Below, piece by piece: positions 52,598 to 64,000 of a DNA stretch of 64,000 nt. Position 1 is the stretch's first letter; each line of letters begins with the position of its first letter. Made by a program: the position numbers and the translations under genes. The stretch comes from Leisingera sp. JC1 (GTDB lineage: Bacteria > Pseudomonadota > Alphaproteobacteria > Rhodobacterales > Rhodobacteraceae): positions 23,193 to 87,192 of the forward strand of contig NZ_LYUZ01000002.1 in the NCBI RefSeq assembly GCF_001679925.1, in the 5' to 3' direction. The notes below the pieces were generated by a model. That model was not told where the DNA came from, did no database searches, and saw nothing but the letters and a program-made list of their open reading frames with translations.

Positions 52598-52723
52598 GCA
52601 GGTCAGCCTTCCAGCCAGGGTGGGTAAACAGCGGCTTGCAATACAGGCAAATGCCGCTGCTTGCAATGGAGCGGCATTTACCCGATTTTGACTGCAAAGG
52701 CCAGAAAGGCAGGGCAGACCAGC

Positions 52724-53593
52724 ATGATGTATTCCTCGCTGAAGGATTTCCTGAAACAGGGCAAACCACTACTGGCCAAGGGACCGGTGGCGCTGGTCTT
52801 CATTGAAGATGAAACAGAGACAGCCACCACACTGCGCCACCACCTTCAATGCGGCTTCAAGGCCGTGGCGGCTTTGATGCCGGATGCATTTGACCTGCCG
52901 CCGGATGTGCGCGCCATGGTGCATCGGGTGCCTTTTGACTGCGGATCGGAAGGGGCAGTCACAGGCGCCGTCAATGCCGTTATCGCTGCGGCTGAACCAG
53001 GCTGCTGGCTCTACTACTGCTATAACGCGGAATACCTGTTCTACCCGTTTTGCGAGTCGCGCGGGATCGGAGAGATGCTTGCTTTCCACACCGAGGAACG
53101 CCGGGATGCGATGCTCACCTATGTGATCGACCTCTATGCCGGCGATCTGAATGCCTGCCCCAGTGCAGTGTCGCTTGAAGAGGCATATCTCGACAAATCC
53201 GGTTACTATGCGCAGTCGCGGCAGGATCCGGAAACCGGACACCCGCGCGAGCGGCAGCTGGATTTCTTCGGCGGTGTTCGCTGGCGCTTCGAAGAACACA
53301 TCCCCGCGGCCAGCCGCAAAATCGACCGGATTTCACTGTTCCGCGCCAAACCGGGTCTGCAACTGCAGCTGGATCACACTTTCAACGATCAGGAATACAA
53401 CACATATGCGTGCCCCTGGCACCACAACCTGACTGCCGCCATCTGTTCTTTCCGCACCGCCAAGGCGCTTAAGCGGAATCCAGGTTCCACTTTCGATATC
53501 GAAACCTTCCGCTGGCATAATTCCGCGCCGTTTGAATGGCATTCGCGCCAGCTTCTGGATCTGGGGCTTATGGAACCGGGTCAATGGTTCTAA
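52724..53593 (+). CDS. Protein of unknown function, resembles roseobacter glycosyltransferase-2-like proteins
   Basis: A 289-residue protein without a signal peptide. It has an alpha/beta N-terminal half ([34 protein letters not shown]) and a Tyr-rich centre ([18 protein letters not shown]). The C-terminal half contains [23 protein letters not shown] and a conserved-looking [13 protein letters not shown] end. The layout suggests a nucleotide-sugar-transferase-like fold, but no DxD motif is certain. It is monocistronic, divergent from miaB with 126 bp between. ATG 52724 or 52727 are both possible. Confidence 0.75.
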
Positions 53594-53762: not shown

Positions 53763-55280
53763 TTACCTTTTCCCAGCCACAATCCGGTCGAGGATCAGGG
53801 CGCAGAACAAGATTGCCAGACCGGCCAGAATACCTTGGCCGGCGGCGGCATATTGCAGCGCTTCCAGCACATCCTCACCCAGCCCCTTGGCACCGATCAG
53901 CGAAGCCACCACAACCATAGCCAATGACAGCAGGATGGTCTGGTTGACGCCGGCCATGATTGTCTTGCGGGCCAGCGGCAGGTCGACCCGCCACAGGAGG
54001 TAGCGCGGGGTGGCGCCGAAGGCGAGCGCGGCCTCGCGCACGGTTTCGGGCACCTGCTGCAGGCCCAGCACGGTGAAGCGGATCACCGGCGGGCTGCCGA
54101 AGATCATGGTGGCGACCACGCCCGCGGGCTTGCCGGAGCCGATGAAGGCGACCACCGGGATCAGGTAGACGAAGGAGGGCATAGACTGCATGAAATCAAG
54201 GACAGGCCGCACCACCGCGAACACCTTGGGGCGGCGGGCGCAGTAGATGCCGAGCGGAATGCCCAAGGTGATCGAGATCAGCGCCGCGGCGCCCAGGAGG
54301 GCAATGGTGGTCATCGCCTTTTCCCAGAAGTCCAAGAGGCCCAGGTAGGCCAGTGCTGCGCCGGTGAAGATCGCCACCCTTGCGCCTGCCGACAGGTAGG
54401 CCAGCATCACAATGACCAGCGCCACCACCGGCCAGGGGGTATCGACCAGCACCACTTCGATCCAGTCCAGAAGCGTGCGCATGCCGGCGGTCAGCCCGTC
54501 GAAGAAGCCGCGCCCGGAGGTCTTGGTCCAGTCGAACGCCGCCTGCACCCCGTCGCCGACGTTCAGCCGCCAGTCGCGGTTGGTGGGGAAGGCGTTCAGC
54601 AGCGAGAAGGCATCGGGCATCGCAAATTTCAGCGCCGACAGCACAACCACGGCGGCTGCCAGCACGGCGGAGACGATCAGCCGCGGCAGCGACCAGCCGC
54701 TGGCGACGCGGCGGTCGGATCGCCAGCGGGCAAACTGCCCCTCCAGCGTCCAGTTCGCAAGCGAGGACGCCAGAAACTTGACCGCCAGCAGCAGCGCCGC
54801 GCCGGCAATCAGGTAGATAGTGCCGCTGGCATTGGCGGCTGCTGCGGCCTGCTGCGCGCCTGCCAGCGCCGCCTCCAGCGACTCTGCCGCGCGTTTCAGA
54901 GAGTCCAGCGAGGAGGAACCGGAAGCCTCCGCCGCGGCGATCTGCTGGTGCCGCAGGTCGAGCGTCTGGGCGATCTGCTCGGCGCGCAGGCGGGAGTCCC
55001 GGCCGAGGTCGCCGAACAGCCCCATCGCGATCTGGATATAGGCGAGCGTTTCCAGCAGCAGGAAGCCCAGGAACCAGGACCACAGGCCCCGCGCGCCGAA
55101 CCAAACCGGCCCCAGCAGCGCGGCGGCACGGTTCAGGGTGAAGCGGTAGCCGGGCGCCTCCATCATGTAGGAGAAAACGCGCTGGTAATAGGCCTGCGAC
55201 TGGCCGGTGAATTCCGCCACCAGCGCATTCAAGCGCCCGGCGGTTTCCGGTTGGATCTGTGATTGGTCGATGTATTTCAT
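53763..55280 (-). CDS. Glycine betaine/proline-type ABC permease with long N-terminal extension
   Basis: A 505-residue membrane protein. The C-terminal 250 residues are an OpuAB/ProW permease (ALISITLGIPLGIYCARRPKVFAVVRPVLDFMQSMPSFVYLIPVVAFIG, and the ATPase loop EAALAFGATPRYLLWRVDLPLARKTIMAGVNQ). The first 230 are unusual: an amphipathic start, a hydrophobic pair (AALLGPVWFGARGLWSWFLGFLLLE) reminiscent of DUF2628, a likely coiled coil (LRAEQIAQTLDLRHQQIAAAE...) and another membrane span. It is 11 bp after the ATPase gene. Confidence 0.88.
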   Translation of the reverse strand: MKYIDQSQIQPETAGRLNALVAEFTGQSQAYYQRVFSYMMEAPGYRFTLNRAAALLGPVWFGARGLWSWFLGFLLLETLAYIQIAMGLFGDLGRDSRLRAEQIAQTLDLRHQQIAAAEASGSSSLDSLKRAAESLEAALAGAQQAAAAANASGTIYLIAGAALLLAVKFLASSLANWTLEGQFARWRSDRRVASGWSLPRLIVSAVLAAAVVVLSALKFAMPDAFSLLNAFPTNRDWRLNVGDGVQAAFDWTKTSGRGFFDGLTAGMRTLLDWIEVVLVDTPWPVVALVIVMLAYLSAGARVAIFTGAALAYLGLLDFWEKAMTTIALLGAAALISITLGIPLGIYCARRPKVFAVVRPVLDFMQSMPSFVYLIPVVAFIGSGKPAGVVATMIFGSPPVIRFTVLGLQQVPETVREAALAFGATPRYLLWRVDLPLARKTIMAGVNQTILLSLAMVVVASLIGAKGLGEDVLEALQYAAAGQGILAGLAILFCALILDRIVAGKR

Positions 55281-55291
55281 CACCCTTCTCC

Positions 55292-56341
55292 TTACGCCTG
55301 ACTGTCCTGAATGGCGCGGATCAGGCCCGCGCGGTTGATCACCCCGACGGTGGCGCCATCATCCGCCACCTTGACGATGCCGTGGCCGTCTACTGCCAGC
55401 TCCATCAGGTCGCTGAGGTCCATGTCGGGCCGCGCCTCCCTCGCGTCGGCGGGCAGGGCACCGTAGGCGGCCTCGAACTCGGCAACGGGTTTCATCACCG
55501 AATGGGCGAAAATCATGTTGAGCTTGGAGATGCCGGCCACGAAATCCGCCACGTAGCCGTCCGCCGGGTTGAGGATGATTTCCTCCGGCGTGCCGATCTG
55601 CACGATGCGGCCGTCCTTCATAATGGCAATGCGGTGGCCGATGCGGATCGCCTCATCCAGGTCATGGGTGATGAACATGGTGGTCTTGCCCAGCTTGCGG
55701 GACAGCTCCATGAACTGGTCCTGCAGCTGCTTGCGGATCAGCGGATCAAGCGCTGAAAAGGGCTCGTCCATCAGCAGGATCTCAGGGTCGGAGGCGATGG
55801 CGCGGGCAAGCCCCACCCGCTGCTGCATGCCGCCCGACAGCTCATGGGCGTATTTGTCCTCCCAGCCCGACAGCTCCACCAGCTCCAGCACCCGGTCGGC
55901 TTCCTCCCAGCGGCGGGCCTTGCCGGTGCCGCGGATTTCCAGCGGCATCGCCACATTGTCGCGCACCGTGCGGTGGGGCATCAGGCCGAAGTTCTGGAAC
56001 ACCATGGCAACCCGGCGGTTACGCAGGTCGCGCAGCCCCTCGGCGTTCAGCCCCATCACATCATCGCCATTGATGTAGATATGGCCGTCGGTCGGCTCCA
56101 GGAGCCGGTTCACATGGCGCACCAGCGTCGATTTGCCGGAGCCCGACAGGCCCATCACGCAGAACAGCTCGCCGCGTTCGATCTGGAAGCTGGCATCGGC
56201 GACGCCAACCACGCAGTTGAACCGCTCCAGCACCTGCGGCTTGGTCAGCCCTTCGGCGTGAATGGCCTTGAGCGCCTCGGCGGAGCGCGCGCCGAAGATC
56301 TTCCAGACGCCGCGTGCGTCGATTGCAATTTCCTTTTCCAT
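55292..56341 (-). CDS. Glycine betaine/proline-type ABC ATPase
   Basis: A 349-residue OpuAA/ProV-type ATPase: Walker A GLSGSGKS, Q-loop VFQNFGLMPH, signature LSGGMQQRVGLARAIA and Walker B ILLMDEPFSALDPL, then His in FITHDLDEA. A C-terminal CBS-like domain (LMELAVDGHGIVKVADDGATVGVINRAGLIRAI) could sense ionic strength as in OpuA. It energises the uptake of the substrate bound by the next gene's product. Confidence 0.94.
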   Translation of the reverse strand: MEKEIAIDARGVWKIFGARSAEALKAIHAEGLTKPQVLERFNCVVGVADASFQIERGELFCVMGLSGSGKSTLVRHVNRLLEPTDGHIYINGDDVMGLNAEGLRDLRNRRVAMVFQNFGLMPHRTVRDNVAMPLEIRGTGKARRWEEADRVLELVELSGWEDKYAHELSGGMQQRVGLARAIASDPEILLMDEPFSALDPLIRKQLQDQFMELSRKLGKTTMFITHDLDEAIRIGHRIAIMKDGRIVQIGTPEEIILNPADGYVADFVAGISKLNMIFAHSVMKPVAEFEAAYGALPADAREARPDMDLSDLMELAVDGHGIVKVADDGATVGVINRAGLIRAIQDSQA

Positions 56342-56370
56342 CCGGACCCCCGTCTAACTTAAGGAAGGTA

Positions 56371-56395
56371 CCCCGGCGGCAGGCCGCAGCCGGGG
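56371..56395 (-). repeat. GC-rich stem-loop between binding-protein and ATPase genes
   Basis: Arms CCCCGGC (56371-56377) and GCCGGGG (56389-56395) around an 11-nt loop that can pair further. It lies directly after the binding-protein stop. It has no T-tract and probably protects the upstream mRNA segment. Confidence 0.65.
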
Positions 56396-56415
56396 CGCAC
56401 GTGTGGGAGGGCGCG

Positions 56416-57384
56416 TTATTTCAGGCCGAGCCAGGTATCGACGGTGTCGCCATTGGCGGCGATCCAGTCTGCAACAACCGCGTCGATCTCATTGCCTTTG
56501 ACCACCACCTCGTAGGTGAGTTCGGACAGGGCTTCGGCGCTCATGTCGATGCTGGACAGAAAGGAGGCTGCGGCCGGGTTGCGGTCCTTCAGCGAGCTGG
56601 AATAGGCCACGGTCACAGTCTTGACCGGCTCGCCGGTGGAGATGTGCGAGTTGTTGTACCAATCGGCATCCTGATCCGGCTGCACCATCTTGTAGGTATT
56701 TGCGTCATGCTCCGGCTCTTCCAGGATAGTCACGTCATAGAGCGCATGAACATAGTGCGGCGCGTAGCAGTAGAAGGCAGCGCCTTTCTCCTGGTCGACC
56801 AGGTCCTTGAGCCGGGAATAGAACACGGTTTCGTCTTCGGTGGTCGGGGTCAGGAAGGTCTCGATGCCGTAGTCGCGCACCCGCACCTTGAAAGTATTGG
56901 TCGAGGCCCAGCCGGAGGCACCGACCCAGACCTCCCCCATGCCGTCGCCGTCGCTGTCAAACAGCGCCTGCGCTTCGGGAGTGGCAAGGTCGAAGATCGA
57001 TTTTATGTTGTGATTCTCGACCATGTAGTTGGGCACGCAGATGCCCGCGCGGCCTTCGTAGCTGCCGGAGGACAGCGCCACGGTGCCTTTCTGATCGACA
57101 TATTCGTCGGTGAAGGAGGCCTGGTTCGGCAGCCACACATCCGGGTGCACGTCGATGTCGCCGCGGCCGCCGTCCATCGAGGCGAAGATCACCGCGTTGG
57201 CGCCGGGGGCGTAGCCGGCCTCGCTGCCGAGGCGGGTTTCGATCACCTGGCCGATGATCCGGCTCATGATCTTGGCGCCGGGCCAGCTGGGCTCGCCCAC
57301 CATGACTTTCTCCTGTGCCGTGGCACTGGTGGCCGCGGCTGCGCCCAAGGCGGTAACGGCGGTGGCGAAGATGATATTTTTCAT
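56416..57384 (-). CDS. Glycine betaine/choline-type ABC substrate-binding protein (OpuAC/ProX family)
   Basis: A 322-residue secreted protein with a signal peptide (ALGAAAATSATAQEK). VMVGEPSWPGAKIMSRIIGQVIETRLG is the ligand-binding N-lobe with the aromatic Trp. Further Trp and Tyr residues (DVHPDVWLPNQ, VGASGWAST, YCYAPHYVH) could build a cation-pi cage for a quaternary ammonium or sulfonium ligand. It follows the DUF1989-GcvT gene by 37 bp. ATG 57384 is chosen over an in-frame start at 57420 that lacks a signal sequence. Confidence 0.9.
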   Translation of the reverse strand: MKNIIFATAVTALGAAAATSATAQEKVMVGEPSWPGAKIMSRIIGQVIETRLGSEAGYAPGANAVIFASMDGGRGDIDVHPDVWLPNQASFTDEYVDQKGTVALSSGSYEGRAGICVPNYMVENHNIKSIFDLATPEAQALFDSDGDGMGEVWVGASGWASTNTFKVRVRDYGIETFLTPTTEDETVFYSRLKDLVDQEKGAAFYCYAPHYVHALYDVTILEEPEHDANTYKMVQPDQDADWYNNSHISTGEPVKTVTVAYSSSLKDRNPAAASFLSSIDMSAEALSELTYEVVVKGNEIDAVVADWIAANGDTVDTWLGLK

Positions 57385-57421
57385 CGATTTCTCTCTCCTG
57401 TTGGTGTTTGTTTCAAGCACC

Positions 57422-59737
57422 TCAGGCGCGCGCCCGCTTGCGCTGCGGGTCTATGAAGGGGATGCCGGTGACGGTGGCGCCGAGGCGCTTCATCCGGCCG
57501 TCGAGCTGGCCGATTTCCAGCCGGGTGCCGTTTTCCGCGTGCTCGACACCCAGCCGGGCGATGGCGATGGCGTGTTCCAGCATCGGCGAGCGGGTGGCGG
57601 AGGTGACGGTGCCGACCTGCCGTTCGCCGGCATAGACCGGGCTGCCGTGCAGCGGCACGTCATTGCAGCCCAGCAGCAGGCCCTTGAGCAGCCGGCGCGG
57701 CGCACGCGCGTTGCGCTCCAGCGCCGCCTTGCCGGTGAAATCGGCTTTAGTCAGGTCGATGGCAAAGCCGAGGCCTGCCTCAAATGCATCCACGCCCGGT
57801 GCGAATTCGGCGTTGGCGGCGGCCAGCCCGGCCTCGATCCGGATGATTTCCAGCGCGGCGGAGCCCATCGGAGTGATCCCGAATTCCCCGCCTGCCTCCA
57901 TCACTGCGTCCCAGATATCCAAGGCGTGGGCCTGGGAGCAGAAAATCTCATAGCCCAGCTCGCCGGTGTAGCCGGAGCGCGACAGCATGAAGGGCGCGCC
58001 TTCGCGGTCGTGCAGCCGCGCCACGGTGACGCCGAACCATTTGAGCTGGTCCAGCTGCGGCACATGCGGCTGGTTAAAGGCGATCTTGCGCAGGAGGTCG
58101 CGCGATTTGGGACCTTGGATCGCCAGATTGGGCATCGCGCCGCGCATGTCGTGAATGCGGACCTGCAGGCCCATCTGCTGCGCCAGCGTTTCCAGCAACC
58201 GGCCGCTTTCCTCGGAGCCGCAGCACCAGCGGAACAGGTCAGGGGCGAGCCGGAACAGGGTACCGTCGTCGATCACCGAGCCACCCTCATCACACATCAG
58301 CGTGTAGGAGCCGCGCCAGACCGGCAGCTTGGCGACGTTGCGGGTGGTGGCCTGCTGCAGCAGCGTCTCAGCATCGGGGCCGGCGATGTCGTATTTGCGC
58401 AGCCCGCTCATGTCCTGCACCGTCACCGCGTTGCGGCAGGCCCAGTATTCGCCGGTGGTGCCGTGCGAGGGGAAGCTTACCGGCGCCCAGAGATCGCGCG
58501 CGGGGGCGAAATGCTGGGTCAGCGGCTCCAGCCGCGCGTGAAAGGCGGAGTTCTGGCTGATCGACATCGGGGCGTCTTCCTTTTCGCGGTAGGCAACAGC
58601 GCGGCGCAGGGGTGTTTCGGGGCGGTAGATGCGGACATGCACGTCTGTCGGGTTCCAGCCGTTGATCGGGTCGATATCGTCCGGGCAGGCGGTGGAGACG
58701 CAGACCAGATCCTCCAGCGCCCGCATCGCCATGTAATCGCCGGGGCGGGAGTGGGATTCCTCGGTCAGGATGTGGTGCGAATGCGGATCGACCCAGGTGT
58801 TCCAGAAAAAATTGATGGCAGGCCAGGCTGCACGCGGCGCCACGCCGTAGGGGGCCAGCGCATGGGACATGTTGTCGGAGCAGTTCACATGGCCGGGGAA
58901 GCCGCGCTCCTCGTACCCGCGCGCGGTGCAGGCGAGGCCGAAAGTGTCGTGGCGGCCGCAGGTGTCCTGGATCACGTTCAGCATCGGGTGCATGCCGGGG
59001 TCGAAGAACTTGTCCAGCAATCCCGGCCCCGGATAGGCGCGACGAACCATCGAGCGGGTCGCGGTGCTGTCGATCATCAACTCTTCGCCGCGCTCCAGCC
59101 CGGCGGCGCGGAAGGCGGTGAAGTCGGAGCACTGCTGCCCTTCCACGTCGATGATCTGGATAATCTCGCCTTTCTTCACCTCGTAGGCGCAGCCGGTGCC
59201 GCGGCTGACGGTGAACTCGTCGCGGGTGTCGCCGAGCAGCGGCGGCAGCAGCGGCGCGGTGCCCGGTCCGGGCTGCCAGGTGATTTCCATCCCGCCCGAA
59301 ACGGTGCCGTGCACCAGATCCTGGGGACGGGCCGGGCGGAAGATCCAGACGGTGGCCCGGGCGGCGGCTTTCAGTATCAGCGGCTCCTCCGCGGCAGTGA
59401 GGGTGCAGGCCGGGATTTCAGCGGTGCTGTCACCGCCGCGGGCATTGATCCAGCCCAGCAGCACGGCAGGGTCGCATTCCGCCAGGCGCAGCGCGCCGTC
59501 CGCCGTCAGCCCCAGTGTGGCCAGCGCCGGGCGGCCGGCCGCGTCAAACGCCGCGATCTGGCACTCGGTTCCGGCCAGTGACAGCAGATCCCCCGGCCGC
59601 ATCTCCTGCATCAGGCCTTGGCGCGGGGCGAGACGGTGCGTCACGCCTTCGAGGGGCTTGGGGAAGCCAGGGAAGGACCGGGCTGGGGTTCTGAACCCCA
59701 TGTTGTCGAAATCGCGCAGGACTGCGTAGCGGGTCAT
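57422..59737 (-). CDS. DUF1989-GcvT fusion protein (putative C1 demethylase)
   Basis: A 771-residue two-part enzyme. Residues 1-150 are an undefined region. Residues about 165-375 are DUF1989, with KKGEIIQIIDVEGQQCSDFTAF as the recognisable block. Residues about 395-765 are GcvT-like, with SGLRKYDIAGPDAETLLQQATTRN, LMCDEGGSVIDDGTLFRL, LSRSGYTGELGYEIFC and KADFTGKAALERN. GcvT-type proteins include DMSP demethylase and sarcosine or dimethylglycine C1 transferases. It is the first gene of the unit that continues into the ABC importer, and is divergent from the LacI gene across two operators. The substrate is unknown. Confidence 0.88.
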   Translation of the reverse strand: MTRYAVLRDFDNMGFRTPARSFPGFPKPLEGVTHRLAPRQGLMQEMRPGDLLSLAGTECQIAAFDAAGRPALATLGLTADGALRLAECDPAVLLGWINARGGDSTAEIPACTLTAAEEPLILKAAARATVWIFRPARPQDLVHGTVSGGMEITWQPGPGTAPLLPPLLGDTRDEFTVSRGTGCAYEVKKGEIIQIIDVEGQQCSDFTAFRAAGLERGEELMIDSTATRSMVRRAYPGPGLLDKFFDPGMHPMLNVIQDTCGRHDTFGLACTARGYEERGFPGHVNCSDNMSHALAPYGVAPRAAWPAINFFWNTWVDPHSHHILTEESHSRPGDYMAMRALEDLVCVSTACPDDIDPINGWNPTDVHVRIYRPETPLRRAVAYREKEDAPMSISQNSAFHARLEPLTQHFAPARDLWAPVSFPSHGTTGEYWACRNAVTVQDMSGLRKYDIAGPDAETLLQQATTRNVAKLPVWRGSYTLMCDEGGSVIDDGTLFRLAPDLFRWCCGSEESGRLLETLAQQMGLQVRIHDMRGAMPNLAIQGPKSRDLLRKIAFNQPHVPQLDQLKWFGVTVARLHDREGAPFMLSRSGYTGELGYEIFCSQAHALDIWDAVMEAGGEFGITPMGSAALEIIRIEAGLAAANAEFAPGVDAFEAGLGFAIDLTKADFTGKAALERNARAPRRLLKGLLLGCNDVPLHGSPVYAGERQVGTVTSATRSPMLEHAIAIARLGVEHAENGTRLEIGQLDGRMKRLGATVTGIPFIDPQRKRARA

Positions 59738-59755
59738 TTTTTGCCGAATCTGGTT

Positions 59756-59771
59756 ATGTAACTGGTTACAT
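59756..59771. promoter_or_regulatory. LacI-type operator O1, DUF1989-GcvT/lacI intergenic
   Basis: ATGTAACTGGTTACAT has 7-bp arms ATGTAAC/GTTACAT around two bases. It lies 19 bp before the DUF1989-GcvT start and so overlaps its promoter or leader. Confidence 0.85.
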
Positions 59772-59776
59772 GGTTG

Positions 59777-59792
59777 ATGAAACTAGTTACAT
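59777..59792. promoter_or_regulatory. LacI-type operator O2, DUF1989-GcvT/lacI intergenic
   Basis: ATGAAACTAGTTACAT differs from a perfect palindrome at one pair. Its centre is 21 bp from that of the first operator, two helical turns, which would allow two dimers on the same face. Confidence 0.8.
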
Positions 59793-59846
59793 CTGTCAAG
59801 ATTTTCGTTAACCATGAGGCCGGAGCGGAAAAGGAAGGCAGGCGGA

Positions 59847-60869
59847 ATGCAGCGGAACACATCCAGGAAACGCGCCAACCTGCGGGATGTTGCAGCAGCC
59901 GCCGGAGTTTCAGTTGCGACGGTATCCCGCGTCATGAACGCACCGGAAACCGTGGCGGAAGCAACCCGCAAAAAGGTCGAAGAGGCGATGAACAGCCTGC
60001 ACTGGGTGCCCAGTGCAGCAGCCCGCGCCATTAACACCGGACGTACACGGTTTGTAGGGGCGCTGGTACCGACACTGGACAATGCCATCTTTGCCAGGAT
60101 GCTTGCCAGCATGGAGAGCCGGCTGGCCACCCACCGGCTGTCGCTGGTGGTGGCGACAACCGATAATGATCCAGCCCGGGAGGCGGAGAAAGCCAAGGGG
60201 CTGGTCGATATCGGTGCCGAGGGGCTGATTGTCTCCGGTGTCACCCATGCGCCGGAGTTCTACAGTCTGATCGAGCGCTGTCAGCTGCCGGTTGTTTCCA
60301 CATCCTTTTACGATCCGCACTATCAACTTCCTACCATCGGCTATGACAATGCCGCAGCGGCGCGCACCGCCTTGGCCCACCTGACAGACCTTGGCCACAG
60401 CCGGGTTGCAGTGGTGCATGGGCCAAGCGCCAGCAACGACCGGACACAGGCGCGTATTGCCGGACTTGAGAACCACAGCCCCAAAAGCGATCTGAGTTTT
60501 TATGAAGTTCCGCTGTCCATTGCCGGCGGTTGTGAGGCAGGCCGCAACGTTCTGCAGGCGGAAAAACAGCCGACCGCCATCTTGTGCTTGTCAGACGTGC
60601 TGGCATCCGGCGTGCTGTTTGAACTGCAGCGTCAGGGAGTGTCCGTGCCGCAGGAGAAATCCGTGATGGGCCTCGACGACTTGGCCGGCTCAGCCCATTT
60701 GTTTCCCGAGTTGAGCACCGTTCACTTGCCGGTTTCGCGGATGGGGGCGGCGGCAGCGGATGCAATTGCCGCCTGGGTTGAAACCCAGAAAGTGCCGGCG
60801 GCATGCCTATTGAGATCAGATCTCGTCATCAGGGCTTCAACGGCTGCGGCGGCGTCAGACGGCGGCTAA
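59847..60869 (+). CDS. LacI-family regulator of the DUF1989-GcvT/ABC unit
   Basis: A 340-residue LacI repressor: helix-turn-helix NLRDVAAAAGVSVATVSRVMN, hinge helix (AARAINTGRTRFVGALVP) and a periplasmic-binding-like sensor domain. Divergent from the DUF1989-GcvT gene, with the two operators between. ATG 59847 is preceded by GGAAGGCAGGCGG; ATG 59814 is an alternative adding a basic tail. The inducer is probably the imported substrate or a product of it. Confidence 0.93.
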   Translation: MQRNTSRKRANLRDVAAAAGVSVATVSRVMNAPETVAEATRKKVEEAMNSLHWVPSAAARAINTGRTRFVGALVPTLDNAIFARMLASMESRLATHRLSLVVATTDNDPAREAEKAKGLVDIGAEGLIVSGVTHAPEFYSLIERCQLPVVSTSFYDPHYQLPTIGYDNAAAARTALAHLTDLGHSRVAVVHGPSASNDRTQARIAGLENHSPKSDLSFYEVPLSIAGGCEAGRNVLQAEKQPTAILCLSDVLASGVLFELQRQGVSVPQEKSVMGLDDLAGSAHLFPELSTVHLPVSRMGAAAADAIAAWVETQKVPAACLLRSDLVIRASTAAAASDGG

Positions 60870-60921: not shown

Positions 60922-61944
60922 TTAGCCATGCTGCTCTGCCAGCGAGCAGCGGTTCACAAGCTTTGTACCGATACAGATAGACCGGCCTTCCGATTTCCCT
61001 TCAACCATTGCAGTCAATTCGCGCGCAGCCTTGCGCCCCATTTCCCGGTGGGGCACATGCACAGTGGTCAGCGCGGGACTAACGATCTCAGCCAGTTCTA
61101 TGTCATCAAACCCTGTTACAGAGACCTGCTCAGGCACACGGATCCCCAGCCTTCCGGCTTCTCGCAGAGCTCCCGCCGCCAGCACATCGTTGCCGCACAT
61201 GACTGCCGTCGGCCTCGGGACAAATGCCATAAGCTGCCGAAAGGCCTCGGCCCCTCTTTCAATCTCATAATCCGTTTCAATCAGCGCTAGGGTATTTGCA
61301 TCCAGGCCGCTGTCTGCCATCGCCCGCCTGACACCCTCCACCCGGCCTTGCGCCCGGTCATTCCCCTCTGTGATGCCGGAGATCATGGCAATCCGCCGGT
61401 GGCCAGCTGCAATCACGCTCTGCGCCAGTTCGCACATGGCGTCTGCGTTGCTGAAACCGACAGAGGGCCGCTGTGCCTCGGGGTCGTAGGACCATGCGAC
61501 CAGTGACGGAACCTGATGGCGTTCCAGATATTCATAGATTCCAGCATCACGCGCATGCCCGATCAGCAGCAGCCCATCTGCGCCGCGGGCGACAAGGGTG
61601 CGGATCTGCTCGCGTTCCGCCTCAGGGTCATAGGCAGAGCTGGACACCAGCAGCGTATAGCCATCCTCGCGCAGCTGGTCCTGAAACGCCTGAAGGCCGC
61701 GGGCAAAGATCGCGTTGTCCATGGTGGGGATGATGGCGCCGATGGTGAAACTGCGTTTGGCCGCCATCACGCGGGCCGCGAAATTCGGCGTGTAACCCAG
61801 TGATTCGACCGCATCCATCACCCTCTGGCGGGTTGCCTCGATCACCCGGTCCGGGGAATTCAGGCACCGCGACACCGTGGCGGTGGAAACGCCCGCCGCC
61901 TCGGCAACATCGTTAAGTGTTGGAGCTGAACGGGTTTTTCCCAT
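60922..61944 (-). CDS. LacI-family regulator facing the TRAP transporter
   Basis: A 340-residue LacI regulator: TLNDVAEAAGVSTATVSRCLNSP helix-turn-helix, hinge helix NFAARVMAAKRSFTIGAIIP and a sensor domain (VSVTGFDDIELAEIVSPALTTVHVP). Divergent from the small membrane protein and dctP, with TGTAAGCGCTTACA-type operators between. ATG 61944 places the HTH at the usual distance; ATG 61977 is possible. It is convergent with the first LacI gene (52 bp). Confidence 0.93.
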   Translation of the reverse strand: MGKTRSAPTLNDVAEAAGVSTATVSRCLNSPDRVIEATRQRVMDAVESLGYTPNFAARVMAAKRSFTIGAIIPTMDNAIFARGLQAFQDQLREDGYTLLVSSSAYDPEAEREQIRTLVARGADGLLLIGHARDAGIYEYLERHQVPSLVAWSYDPEAQRPSVGFSNADAMCELAQSVIAAGHRRIAMISGITEGNDRAQGRVEGVRRAMADSGLDANTLALIETDYEIERGAEAFRQLMAFVPRPTAVMCGNDVLAAGALREAGRLGIRVPEQVSVTGFDDIELAEIVSPALTTVHVPHREMGRKAARELTAMVEGKSEGRSICIGTKLVNRCSLAEQHG

Positions 61945-62007
61945 GTGACGTCTGCCATTTCCTTTGCCCCTCGTCATACCACAAAATCCAGCGCTTGCCA
62001 GCCACCC

Positions 62008-62023
62008 ATGTAAGCGCTTGCAT
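62008..62023. promoter_or_regulatory. LacI-type operator O1 of the TRAP locus
   Basis: ATGTAAGCGCTTGCAT is a near-perfect palindrome around AAGCGCTT. A weaker AGCGCT half-site lies at 61990-61995. Confidence 0.85.
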
Positions 62024-62029
62024 TATTGA

Positions 62030-62043
62030 TGTAAGCGCTTACA
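62030..62043. promoter_or_regulatory. LacI-type operator O2 of the TRAP locus
   Basis: TGTAAGCGCTTACA is a perfect 14-bp palindrome whose centre is 21 bp from the first operator. It lies 34 bp before the small ORF. Confidence 0.9.
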
Positions 62044-62076
62044 AATAGGGTTGGGATAACAAATCGGGAACTTGCG

Positions 62077-62262
62077 ATGTTTCTCTGGGCTGCCTCTGCC
62101 GTCTTTACCGTGTTCTTTGCCAATGTCGCCATGGGCGCCTTTGGCGGCGGCGGCTTCCTGGGCGATGTCGGAGAGATGCTGGTTCTGTTCGCTGCTTCGA
62201 TCCTGTTCGTAGCGGCCATTCTCAAGCGCGAGGCTGACCACAAGAACAACAACGGCAGCTGA
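62077..62262 (+). CDS. Small two-span membrane protein, first gene of the TRAP unit
   Basis: A 61-residue protein with two hydrophobic helices (LWAASAVFTVFFANVAMGAFG and a second at MLVLFAASILFVAAIL) and a charged tail. I do not recognise the family. It lies between the LacI operators and dctP, 22 bp from it. Its Shine-Dalgarno is modest (GGGAA). It may be an accessory subunit of the TRAP system. Confidence 0.75.
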   Translation: MFLWAASAVFTVFFANVAMGAFGGGGFLGDVGEMLVLFAASILFVAAILKREADHKNNNGS

Positions 62263-62284
62263 CGGATCTTAAGGGAGGAAAACT

Positions 62285-63430
62285 ATGACGAATGGCAAGG
62301 ATGGCCTCAAATCTGCTGAGCGCCGGAATTTTCTGAAACTGGCCTCGGTCGGCTCATTCACCGCGGCGCTGGTGGCTGGTGCGGGCGGGGTGCTGTGGTC
62401 GTCCGAAGCGGCTGCGCAGACCGCAAAGGAAGAGAAAGAGCGCGAGCGCGCGGCGGAACATATCATGACGGTTGCCACCGCCTATGTGCTGGGAGCGTCA
62501 CGCAGCTATCCGATCATGCAGCTGGATCTCAAAGAGAACATCCAGAACGCCACCAACGGCAAGATCTATGTAAAGCTGGCCCCCGGCGGACAGCTGGGTG
62601 CAGGCGGCGCATTGGTGCAGAAGGTTCAGGGCGGCACCATTCAGGCAGCGCAGCATTCGCTGTCGAATTTTGCCCCCTTCGCTTCGACCGTCGACCTGAT
62701 CAACATGCCCTATCTCTGCGGGTCAAATCAGCGGTTCACCAATCTGGTGAACTCCGACTTCTGGAAGGCGGAAGTGCATCCCAAAGTGGAGGCCGCCGGC
62801 TTCAAGGCGCTGTTCTATGTGAACATCGACCCCCGCGTCGTGGCGGTGCGTAAGGGAGGCAATGCGGTGATGTCGCCAGGCGACATGGCCGGTGTGAAAT
62901 TCCGGGTGCCGGGATCCAAGATGCTGCAGCAGTATTACCGCATGGTTGGTGCCAACCCGACGCCGGTGGCTTGGGGCGAGACGCCCTCCGCCATCAAGCA
63001 GGGGGTAGCTGATGCGCTCGACCCCTCCGTCGGGGCACTGTATGTATTTGGCTTCAAGGATATCCTGAGCCATGTGACCTTCACCCAGGCGGTGCCGGAC
63101 AGCCAAGTCTATTCCTGCAATCTGGAATGGTTCAACTCACTGCCTTCCGACGTGCAGGACGGCGTGATGTGGGGATCGGAAATGACCGCGCATCAGAACC
63201 TGTCCAAAGTGCCCTCCGCCCGCGCCTATGCGATGGCGGAGCTGGCCAAGGCCGGTGTCGAATTTCATACCCTCAGCGACGATCAACTGGGCGAGTGGCA
63301 AGAGGCCGGCGGCTATCAGCGCAGCGAGTGGGATTCCTTCAAGACCGAGCTTGCAGGCTCGATGGAGAGCTTCGCCAAGCTGGAAGAGGCCGCGGGCACC
63401 CAGGGCAAATACTTCGTTCACGACGCCTGA
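62285..63430 (+). CDS. TRAP transporter substrate-binding protein (DctP family)
   Basis: A 381-residue secreted protein with a twin-arginine signal (ERRNFLKLASVGSF, Arg13-Arg14), so it is probably exported folded. The DctP fold is shown by GGQLGAGGALVQKVQGGTIQAAQHS, the Arg-containing VKFRVPGSKMLQQYYRMVGANPTPVAWGE segment and the C-terminal helix region. It should bind a carboxylate; the conserved Arg (KFRVPGS) normally contacts it. The ligand is unknown. AGGGAGGAAAA precedes the ATG. Confidence 0.94.
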   Translation: MTNGKDGLKSAERRNFLKLASVGSFTAALVAGAGGVLWSSEAAAQTAKEEKERERAAEHIMTVATAYVLGASRSYPIMQLDLKENIQNATNGKIYVKLAPGGQLGAGGALVQKVQGGTIQAAQHSLSNFAPFASTVDLINMPYLCGSNQRFTNLVNSDFWKAEVHPKVEAAGFKALFYVNIDPRVVAVRKGGNAVMSPGDMAGVKFRVPGSKMLQQYYRMVGANPTPVAWGETPSAIKQGVADALDPSVGALYVFGFKDILSHVTFTQAVPDSQVYSCNLEWFNSLPSDVQDGVMWGSEMTAHQNLSKVPSARAYAMAELAKAGVEFHTLSDDQLGEWQEAGGYQRSEWDSFKTELAGSMESFAKLEEAAGTQGKYFVHDA

Positions 63431-63539
63431 GCCGCACTAGGCGGGGCGCCTTCATCCGGCCCCCGCAATTTTCAACAGCAGCCTTCGCAACAGCCCGCCG
63501 AGCTGGCTGCGGGGGCGTGCCTGAACCCCGGGAACGGCA

Positions 63540-64000
63540 ATGCACATCCTGCGAAACATCGACAAGAACGCGGAGCGCTGGCTGCTCCTGGTGTTCTACG
63601 TGATGCTGGTCATCACTATGGCGATCGAAGTGATCCGGCGCGAGCTGTTTGCCTTCTCCTCGATCTGGGGTGAGGAGATAGTCCGCTATTCCTTTATCTA
63701 CCTCGCCTGGATCGGCGCCGCAGCGGCAGTCAAGGAACGCGCCCATATCCGTATCGACGTGATCCTGCATTACCTGGGGCCCCGCCCCAAGGCGCTGATC
63801 TATATCTTCGGCGACCTGGTGATGTTCATCGTGGCATTGGTGGCGCTTTACTGGTCGTTCGAGACGGTGCTGGTCTCGGCCAAGTTCGGATCGGTGAGCC
63901 ACGGGCTGCGGGTGTCGATGGTCTGGTTCCTGATGGCGGTGCCCGCGGGCTTTGCCCTGATGATCTGGCGCCTGCTGCAATCATTCCTGCGTGACTACCG
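63540..64000 (+). CDS. TRAP transporter small permease (DctQ family), 3' end outside window
   Basis: Open from ATG 63540 to the window edge, 153 codons. It has four hydrophobic segments; GEEIVRYSFIYLAWIGAAAAVKERAHIRIDVI is the typical DctQ block. It is the small membrane subunit and should be followed by the large DctM permease beyond the window. It begins 109 bp after dctP. Confidence 0.92.
   Translation, partial: MHILRNIDKNAERWLLLVFYVMLVITMAIEVIRRELFAFSSIWGEEIVRYSFIYLAWIGAAAAVKERAHIRIDVILHYLGPRPKALIYIFGDLVMFIVALVALYWSFETVLVSAKFGSVSHGLRVSMVWFLMAVPAGFALMIWRLLQSFLRDY

What the first reader, a model, noticed from the sequence alone, without database searches (positions are those of the whole stretch)
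53763..60869. DUF1989-GcvT fusion enzyme linked to an OpuA-like importer and a LacI regulator: candidate new osmolyte demethylation system
One unit holds a GcvT-type C1 transferase fused to DUF1989 and a complete quaternary-amine-type ABC importer whose binding protein is rich in Trp/Tyr. A divergent LacI gene lies behind paired operators. GcvT homologues include DMSP demethylase and N-methyl amine C1 transferases. The inference is uptake plus demethylation of a methylated sulfonium or ammonium compound, with DUF1989 handling a second step.
Basis: partly seen in the sequence, partly recalled or inferred. Interest (0 to 1): 0.8.

Follow-up and report, generated by a model that had tools for sequence, protein, structure and literature searches.

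The report
Second TMAO-demethylase-like osmolyte system
Some marine bacteria carry, alone or beside the known enzyme for breaking down the fish-odour precursor TMAO, a related enzyme with its own importer and its own repressor switch, which probably strips methyl groups from a different, still unidentified salt-balancing compound.

Summary
In detail: a LacI gene diverges from an operon of DUF1989-GcvT enzyme, OpuA-type binding protein, ATPase and permease, across two palindromic operators. The fusion itself is not new. The enzyme is a paralogue of TMAO demethylase (Tdm; PDB 9q59) with all metal ligands kept, but it falls in a separate clade and below NCBIfam's Tdm cut-off. The same genome has a true Tdm, a TmoX orthologue beside TorT/TorR-like genes, and a Dmm-type (PF11927) protein. 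Genomes with only the window or sister clade lack the high-scoring Dmm-type protein (0 of 34 handles). The binding protein has lost the TmoX glutamate that contacts TMAO and has polar residues near the carboxylate site of its relatives. The operator matches only this locus in the genome, and LacI and operator go together in 77 of 78 loci. In a few relatives the unit sits beside a dimethylglycine-dehydrogenase-like enzyme with ETF, FolD and PurU, or taurine-type genes, or cysteate sulfo-lyase. Best reading: uptake and demethylation of an acid-bearing methylated ammonium compound (or its N-oxide), not TMAO. The substrate is not identified; no experiment was possible. New variant of a known kind.

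The parts
57422..59737 (-). Tdm-paralogue demethylase (DUF1989-like + DUF1989 + GcvT), 771 aa; first gene of the operon
   Evidence: Pfam DUF1989/GCV_T/GCV_T_C; PDB 9q59 E 1.2e-184; NF053776 1039.5 bits, cut-off 1100; metal ligands conserved; own clade
56416..57384 (-). periplasmic substrate-binding protein, OpuAC family (ATG at 57384; the listed frame runs from GTG 57420)
   Evidence: PF04069 141.4 bits; pocket comparison with 4xz6 and 7yle; tree
55292..56341 (-). ABC ATPase, ProV/ChoV type
   Evidence: TIGR01186 349.2 bits over cut-off 326.6
53763..55283 (-). ABC permease, ProW/ChoW type, 506 aa
   Evidence: PF00528; TIGR03416 266.2 bits, below cut-off 363
59814..60869 (+). LacI-family repressor, divergent
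   Evidence: PF00356 and Peripla_BP_3; operator present in 70 of 70 loci with a LacI gene within 1.4 kb upstream
59756..59771 (.). operator 1, ATGTAACTGGTTACAT, nearer the enzyme gene
59777..59792 (.). operator 2, ATGAAACTAGTTACAT, between the -35-like element and operator 1
59794..59799 (-). TTGACA, -35-like element of the enzyme operon, seen by eye; TTGAC lies within 12 bp of the first operator in 55 of 78 loci. The consensus scan found no full sigma-70 promoter here
56342..56415 (-). 74-nt gap between binding-protein and ATPase genes with a G+C-rich inverted repeat, seen by eye; not folded

Best explanation
The unit is a second, dedicated Tdm-type osmolyte demethylation system. Shown by sequence: a Tdm paralogue with the full Zn/Fe site, its own OpuA-type importer whose binding pocket differs from TmoX, and a LacI gene with two operators that match nowhere else in the genome. 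Inferred: the importer brings in an acid-bearing methylated ammonium compound (carboxylate or sulfonate; a betaine or a tertiary-amine N-oxide), not TMAO. The DUF1989 Fe/Zn centre removes one methyl as formaldehyde, the GcvT domain helps pass it to tetrahydrofolate, and remaining N-methyl groups are oxidised by dimethylglycine/sarcosine-dehydrogenase-type flavoproteins feeding ETF, FolD and PurU. LacI is lifted by the substrate or an early product. The exact substrate is not known; the taurine and glycine readings below are sub-cases of this one.
For: Clade: window clade 99, sister clade A2 99, Tdm clade with MsTDM 100 (SH-aLRT, quick search, 66 of 114 rows). Against NF053776 (cut-off 1100) 9 of 9 scored window-clade and A2 proteins get 1026-1055 and 3 of 3 Tdm-clade proteins 1203-1269. 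Same genome: Tdm on C149 (65.5% to MsTDM, against 42.7% for the window protein), TmoX orthologue (E 6.9e-170 to 4xz6) beside TorT/TorR-like genes, PF11927 protein on C114. PF11927 at 218 bits or more: 16 of 16 genomes with Tdm at 67% or more, 3 of 7 with only the 55-57% Tdm group, 0 of 34 with window/A2 clade alone (Fisher p 3e-13 on 16/16 against 0/33 distinct; relatedness ignored, 7 of the 16 are Leisingera or the window's Leisingera-like genome). Pocket (read from the alignments): W34, W84, W159 kept; TmoX F106 to Q88, E131 to A113, F220 to Y205, W222 to Y207; N63 invariant where DmpX has its carboxylate-binding Thr64. Operator and LacI. Of 80 loci, 4 have the DMGDH-like/ETF/FolD/PurU set next door and 2 part of it; 6 have taurine-type genes; 3 have CuyA.
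Against: The metal ligands match Tdm (D198, C263, H276, C279, C343 in 85 of 85 window-clade rows; D346 in 82), so TMAO activity is not excluded, and NF053776 is still the best family. The DMGDH-like gene is common anyway: 95 of 149 family genomes; 8 of 8 with the clade against 87 of 141 without, one-sided p 0.024; the own genome keeps it on another contig, and 'DMGDH-like' is my label, as no curated cut-off was reached. Neighbours and transporters vary between lineages, so the substrate may too. Four window-clade-only genomes (Roseibium/Labrenzia) have a PF11927 protein at 165-188 bits that I could not classify; the other hits in that group are at 171 bits or less. No ligand, activity or expression data.
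Confidence: 0.6

Rival explanations
1. A redundant TMAO system: the enzyme is a Tdm isozyme and the importer a second TMAO importer, used under other conditions through LacI.
For: The Zn/Fe residues and the three-domain build are those of Tdm; NF053776 is the top family, hit by 20 of 20 aligned members.
Against: TmoX E131 and F106 are not kept in the binding protein, and the matching Glu-to-Ala change abolished TMAO binding in SAR11 TmoX (PMC8918994 passage); separate clades; no high-scoring Dmm-type protein in 34 of 34 clade-only handles; TmoX and Tdm elsewhere in the genome.
Confidence: 0.2
2. Sub-case of the best reading: a system for N-methylated taurine (taurine betaine, N,N-dimethyltaurine or its N-oxide), feeding taurine catabolism.
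For: Taurine-type genes (MocR/TauR-like regulator, class III aminotransferase, taurine-type ABC importer) flank the LacI-enzyme pair in 6 of 80 loci in two orientations; CuyA (cysteate sulfo-lyase) in 3 of 80; acid-binding pocket; DMGDH-like partners.
Against: 71 of 80 loci show neither within the fetched flanks; the six come from two groups (Paracoccus; Roseibium/Labrenzia); the taurine names rest on matches below curated cut-offs; in L065 CuyA has its own LysR gene between it and the enzyme.
Confidence: 0.2
3. Sub-case of the best reading: glycine betaine, dimethylglycine N-oxide or a similar glycine compound is demethylated towards dimethylglycine or sarcosine.
For: FAD-GcvT enzymes with ETF, FolD, PurU beside the unit; R. 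pomeroyi DMGDH and SARDH have neighbouring locus tags, SPO3400 and SPO3396 (PMC4744692 passage); a WLPN motif as in OpuAC.
Against: Glycine betaine has no N-O bond for redox-neutral Tdm chemistry (recalled chemistry); linkage is in few lineages.
Confidence: 0.25
4. A demethylase of dimethylsulfoxonium propionate (DMSOP), the sulfur analogue of an N-oxide, giving methylmercaptopropionate and formaldehyde.
For: Redox-equivalent to TMAO demethylation (my reasoning); Y205 matches DmpX Tyr200; whether DmdA could demethylate DMSOP is named as a future priority (PMC10686828 passage).
Against: DmpX Glu113 is lost; the neighbours point to nitrogen compounds; no DmdA over its cut-off in 12 of 57 genome handles.
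Confidence: 0.04

Closest known systems
Tdm, TMAO demethylase (Methylocella silvestris, PDB 9q59)
   Same: Three-domain build, length, Zn/Fe ligands, GcvT domain with the same two folate contacts replaced
   Different: 42.7% identity; separate clade; below the NCBIfam equivalog cut-off; clade-wide changes around the metal motif (MsTDM Y237F, Y267G, Y273F, N284S, F305W); not accompanied by the high-scoring Dmm-type protein when alone
TmoXWV, TMAO importer (TmoX 4xz6)
   Same: OpuAC-type ABC importer; three cage Trp kept
   Different: E131 and F106 lost, F220/W222 to Tyr; apart in the tree
DmpXWV, DMSP importer (DmpX 7yle)
   Same: Cage Trp residues, Ala153 and the Tyr200 position
   Different: Glu113 to Ala, Trp202 to Tyr, Thr64 to Asn
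DmdA and GcvT
   Same: GcvT-type C-terminal half
   Different: DmdA model 140.2 bits against cut-off 410; GcvT 167.4 against 235.85
TmoR and TmaR, regulators of methylamine genes in R. pomeroyi
   Same: Regulators of a methylamine demethylation pathway
   Different: Here a LacI protein with its own palindromic operator pair; TmoR is a GntR protein, and TmaR's tree is rooted with AraC (PMC13390433 abstract and sections 3 and 20)

Membership tests
Tdm (NF053776, TMAO demethylase equivalog) | Score over the curated cut-off of 1100 bits | tested here: not met
   1039.5 bits; 8 further window-clade and A2 proteins 1026-1055; own C149 protein 1237.9
Tdm (NF053776, TMAO demethylase equivalog) | Zn ligands C263/C279/C343 and Fe-site residues D198/H276/D346 | tested here: met
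   residues named in PMC12560246
Tdm (NF053776, TMAO demethylase equivalog) | Groups with characterised MsTDM | tested here: not met
Tdm (NF053776, TMAO demethylase equivalog) | Occurs with a Dmm-type PF11927 protein | tested here: not met
   0 of 34 clade-only handles at 218 bits or more; one genome is counted twice (G063 = G176). Not an absolute mark of Tdm: only 3 of 7 genomes with the 55-57% Tdm group have it
Tdm (NF053776, TMAO demethylase equivalog) | Converts TMAO to dimethylamine and formaldehyde | not testable with these tools
   needs an assay
TmoX (TMAO binding protein) | Pocket W55, W102, F106, E131, W177, F220, W222 | tested here: not met
   3 of 7 identical, 2 aromatic swaps, E131 and F106 lost
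OpuA/ProU-type betaine importer | OpuAC binding protein, ProV-type ATPase, ProW-type permease in one operon | tested here: met
   PF04069, TIGR01186 over cut-off, PF00528
OpuA/ProU-type betaine importer | Binds a betaine | not testable with these tools
   needs ITC or similar
DmdA (DMSP demethylase) | NF009133 over 410 bits | tested here: not met
   140.2 bits
GcvT aminomethyltransferase | TIGR00528 over 235.85 bits | tested here: not met
   167.4 bits
LacI repressor | LacI HTH plus ligand domain with palindromic operator at the target promoter | tested here: met
   DNA binding itself untested

The most novel reading that the evidence does not exclude
A dedicated catabolic system for a methylated compound whose demethylase is not known to me: an N-methylated taurine (taurine betaine or dimethyltaurine N-oxide) or a glycine-type amine N-oxide, handled by a Tdm-derived Fe/Zn enzyme with its own importer and LacI switch, found mainly in marine Rhodobacterales and feeding DMGDH/SARDH-type enzymes.
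Probability: 0.3. Interest if true: 0.75.

Novelty: new variant of a known kind. Interest (0 to 1): 0.55.

Why it matters
Proteins of this clade share the three-domain build and metal ligands of TMAO demethylase and hit the Tdm model with E = 0, so loose annotation or metagenome counts could take them for TMAO demethylase. If the substrate differs, such surveys mix two pathways. It would also show that Tdm chemistry reaches beyond TMAO, and the single-locus LacI switch gives a ready genetic handle for finding the compound.

Tried and rejected
Rejected: 'new fusion' (it is Tdm architecture); DmdA or GcvT membership; TmoXWV membership; a wider LacI regulon (exact 14-mer over 51 genome handles: found in 39, 49 positions, 48 beside the enzyme gene and 1 elsewhere, counted by hand; the reversed control pattern occurs once in each of 8 handles; the duplicate pair G063/G176 is counted twice); DMSOP as main reading.

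Led nowhere: DmdA co-occurrence (45 of 57 over cut-off) does not discriminate. Several neighbours looked unrelated (antiporter-type protein, PfkB, SGL, Hint, Dps, HtrA). A 332-aa plus-strand frame in L065/L070/L074 was first taken for a gene; in L065 the opposite strand encodes a LysR protein, and I assume the same for the other two. ArgH-like genes beside three Roseobacter loci were not followed. A structure model of the enzyme came out at mean pLDDT 63.5 with much of the metal region under 50 and was not used; the binding-protein job was interrupted once and had not finished at the last poll. No fold search was run.

Rows dropped: 10 of 123 enzyme frames (short or identical) before the residue counts, then 48 of 114 before the tree; 2 of 80 loci without upstream DNA; L077's genome is not held; 50 of the 80 loci were given, because of a cap. 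G063 and G176 are one genome.
Full report
What is there. The window lies in a 5.19-Mb draft genome; apart from one MAG, the nearest relatives of the enzyme found are in Leisingera (94% identity).

The enzyme. Its best solved relative is TMAO demethylase (9q59, E 1.2e-184). PMC12560246 (passages read) describes Tdm as a DUF1989-like domain, a DUF1989 domain with Zn and Fe, and a GcvT domain lacking two folate contacts. The window protein has the same DUF1989 and GcvT parts and aligns from residue 54 on. In 113 relatives, D198, C263, H276, C279 and C343 of MsTDM are the same in every row and D346 in all but 3. Folate side: E. coli GcvT Arg223 has no Arg here and Tyr101 is Phe, while Glu597 and the YTGE motif are kept, much as reported for Tdm.

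It is not Tdm proper. On the tree, 40 window-clade rows, 6 sister rows (A2) and 20 Tdm rows separate with SH-aLRT 99, 99 and 100. The 9 window-clade and A2 proteins whose NF053776 scores I saw lie below its cut-off of 1100; the 3 Tdm-clade proteins lie above it. Forty-nine alignment positions carry different residues in more than 85% of the rows on each side, among them MsTDM Y267 to Gly and Y273 to Phe, between Zn ligand C263 and Fe ligand H276. In 149 family genomes, 8 carry the window or A2 clade at 53% or more; the other hits at E 1e-150 or better are at 49% or less. In 385 genomes drawn from the class, 3 have a copy at 63% or more; two at 51-52% were not placed.

The genome already has TMAO genes. 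Tdm is on C149. A TmoX orthologue (E 6.9e-170 to 4xz6) lies about 20 kb from the enzyme on the same contig, outside the window, beside a TorT-like protein (over its cut-off) and a TorR-like regulator (just below its cut-off); all seven TmoX pocket residues are present in it, read by eye. A PF11927 protein of 229.8 bits is on C114. In a Rhizobium plasmid a DUF3445 gene and a gene annotated as DmmA family lie about 6-8 kb from the tdm homologue. Across 57 genome handles, PF11927 at 218 bits or more is in 16 of 16 with Tdm at 67% or more, 3 of 7 with only a 55-57% Tdm, and 0 of 34 with neither. G063 and G176 are one genome, and 7 of the 16 are Leisingera or Leisingera-like. Four of the 34 (Roseibium/Labrenzia) have a 165-188-bit PF11927 protein of unclear kind; the rest have hits of 171 bits or less, or none.

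The importer. Aligned to TmoX and DmpX by a profile, the binding protein family keeps the three cage tryptophans (W34, W84, W159; 30 of 30 sequences) but has Q/H/W at TmoX F106, A/S/T/Q at E131, Tyr at F220, and Tyr (21 of 30) or Trp (9) at W222; N63 is invariant where DmpX has Thr64, a carboxylate contact. The tree puts it with the importers of other window-clade loci and one A2 locus, apart from TmoX, DmpX and ProX, with support 94 for that group; long branches make the deeper joins unsure. A Tdm-clade locus (L137) carries a TmoX orthologue next to its tdm. So in the loci seen, the two enzyme clades go with different OpuA-type importers; no importer frame was recognised on the 9.6-kb contig of the own Tdm, C149.

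The switch. TGWAACYRGTTWCA (up to 1 mismatch) occurs upstream of the enzyme in 71 of 78 loci, 57 of them with two copies, spaced 21 or 22 bp in 47. LacI just upstream and operator go together: 70 with both, 7 with neither, and 1 (L040) with an operator only; in L040 a 47% LacI homologue lies downstream of the permease gene. In the own genome there is no other copy at up to 2 mismatches. An A2-clade locus also has the site (G134).

Neighbours as clues. Beside the unit stand a DMGDH-like FAD-GcvT enzyme, EtfB, EtfA, FolD and PurU in L012, L036, L045 and L069, the first and last of these in L010, and PurU at a contig end in L051. In the two Roseibium/Labrenzia loci fetched, the DMGDH-like gene and a second FAD-GcvT enzyme lie about 8-13 kb off. 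The own genome has such a pair on C92 (74% and 66%, about 5.6 kb apart). Taurine-type genes stand beside it in six loci and CuyA in three. Of six A2 loci, three have a TRAP importer just upstream and one more a DctP gene nearby. These fit an acid-bearing N-methyl compound, but each is seen in a minority of loci. Against it, the DMGDH-like gene is widespread (95 of 149 genomes), so only the linkage counts.

Mechanism. Shown: gene content, metal ligands, operator, clade separation, pocket changes. Inferred: chemistry (Tdm-like, redox-neutral, which calls for an N-O bond; recalled chemistry), formaldehyde to THF, further N-demethylation, LacI induction. If the chemistry is unchanged, a tertiary-amine N-oxide with an acid group fits best; if it has shifted, a betaine.

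Literature. Three papers in the held library contain 'DUF1989'; passages were seen in two of them and a listing of the third. The listings of the other searches (and 15 of 228 papers) showed no paper on a second Tdm clade with a LacI regulator. The original Tdm papers did not appear in those listings and were not read. Other papers were read as passages, abstract or named sections, as cited.

Noticed in passing
60922-63998: A second LacI gene (60922-61977, -) lies divergent from a TRAP-type DctP gene (62285-63430) and a further frame from 63540 that runs off the window (DctQ by position, not scanned); a separate system next door.
   Followed up: no
L124:11388-17262 (about 15-21 kb beyond the enzyme gene on the same contig, outside the window): TorT-like and TorR-like genes sit beside a TmoX orthologue, with a 976-aa frame between them (possible TorS, not identified), suggesting two-component control of TMAO import in this organism.
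   Followed up: partly
L134:8676-10923: The Paracoccus seriniphilus plasmid copy of the enzyme is annotated as two overlapping reading frames, so it may be broken there.
   Followed up: no
L148, L150, L151: Sister-clade (A2) enzymes follow a TRAP importer (DctP, a small middle gene, DctM) with a LysR regulator instead of an OpuA-type importer (families scanned in L148; the others by similarity).
   Followed up: partly
L065, L070, L074: CuyA (cysteate sulfo-lyase) stands between the enzyme and an OpuA-type importer followed by an alpha/beta hydrolase; in L065 a LysR gene lies before CuyA on the other strand.
   Followed up: partly
L044, L047, L060: An ArgH-like lyase gene (scanned in L044, 550 aa) lies downstream of the unit in three Roseobacter loci.
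   Followed up: no
G160:C1:4687825: The only exact operator copy found away from an enzyme gene in 51 genome handles.
   Followed up: no
52661-53593: Reading frame with only a sub-threshold glycosyltransferase hit.
   Followed up: no
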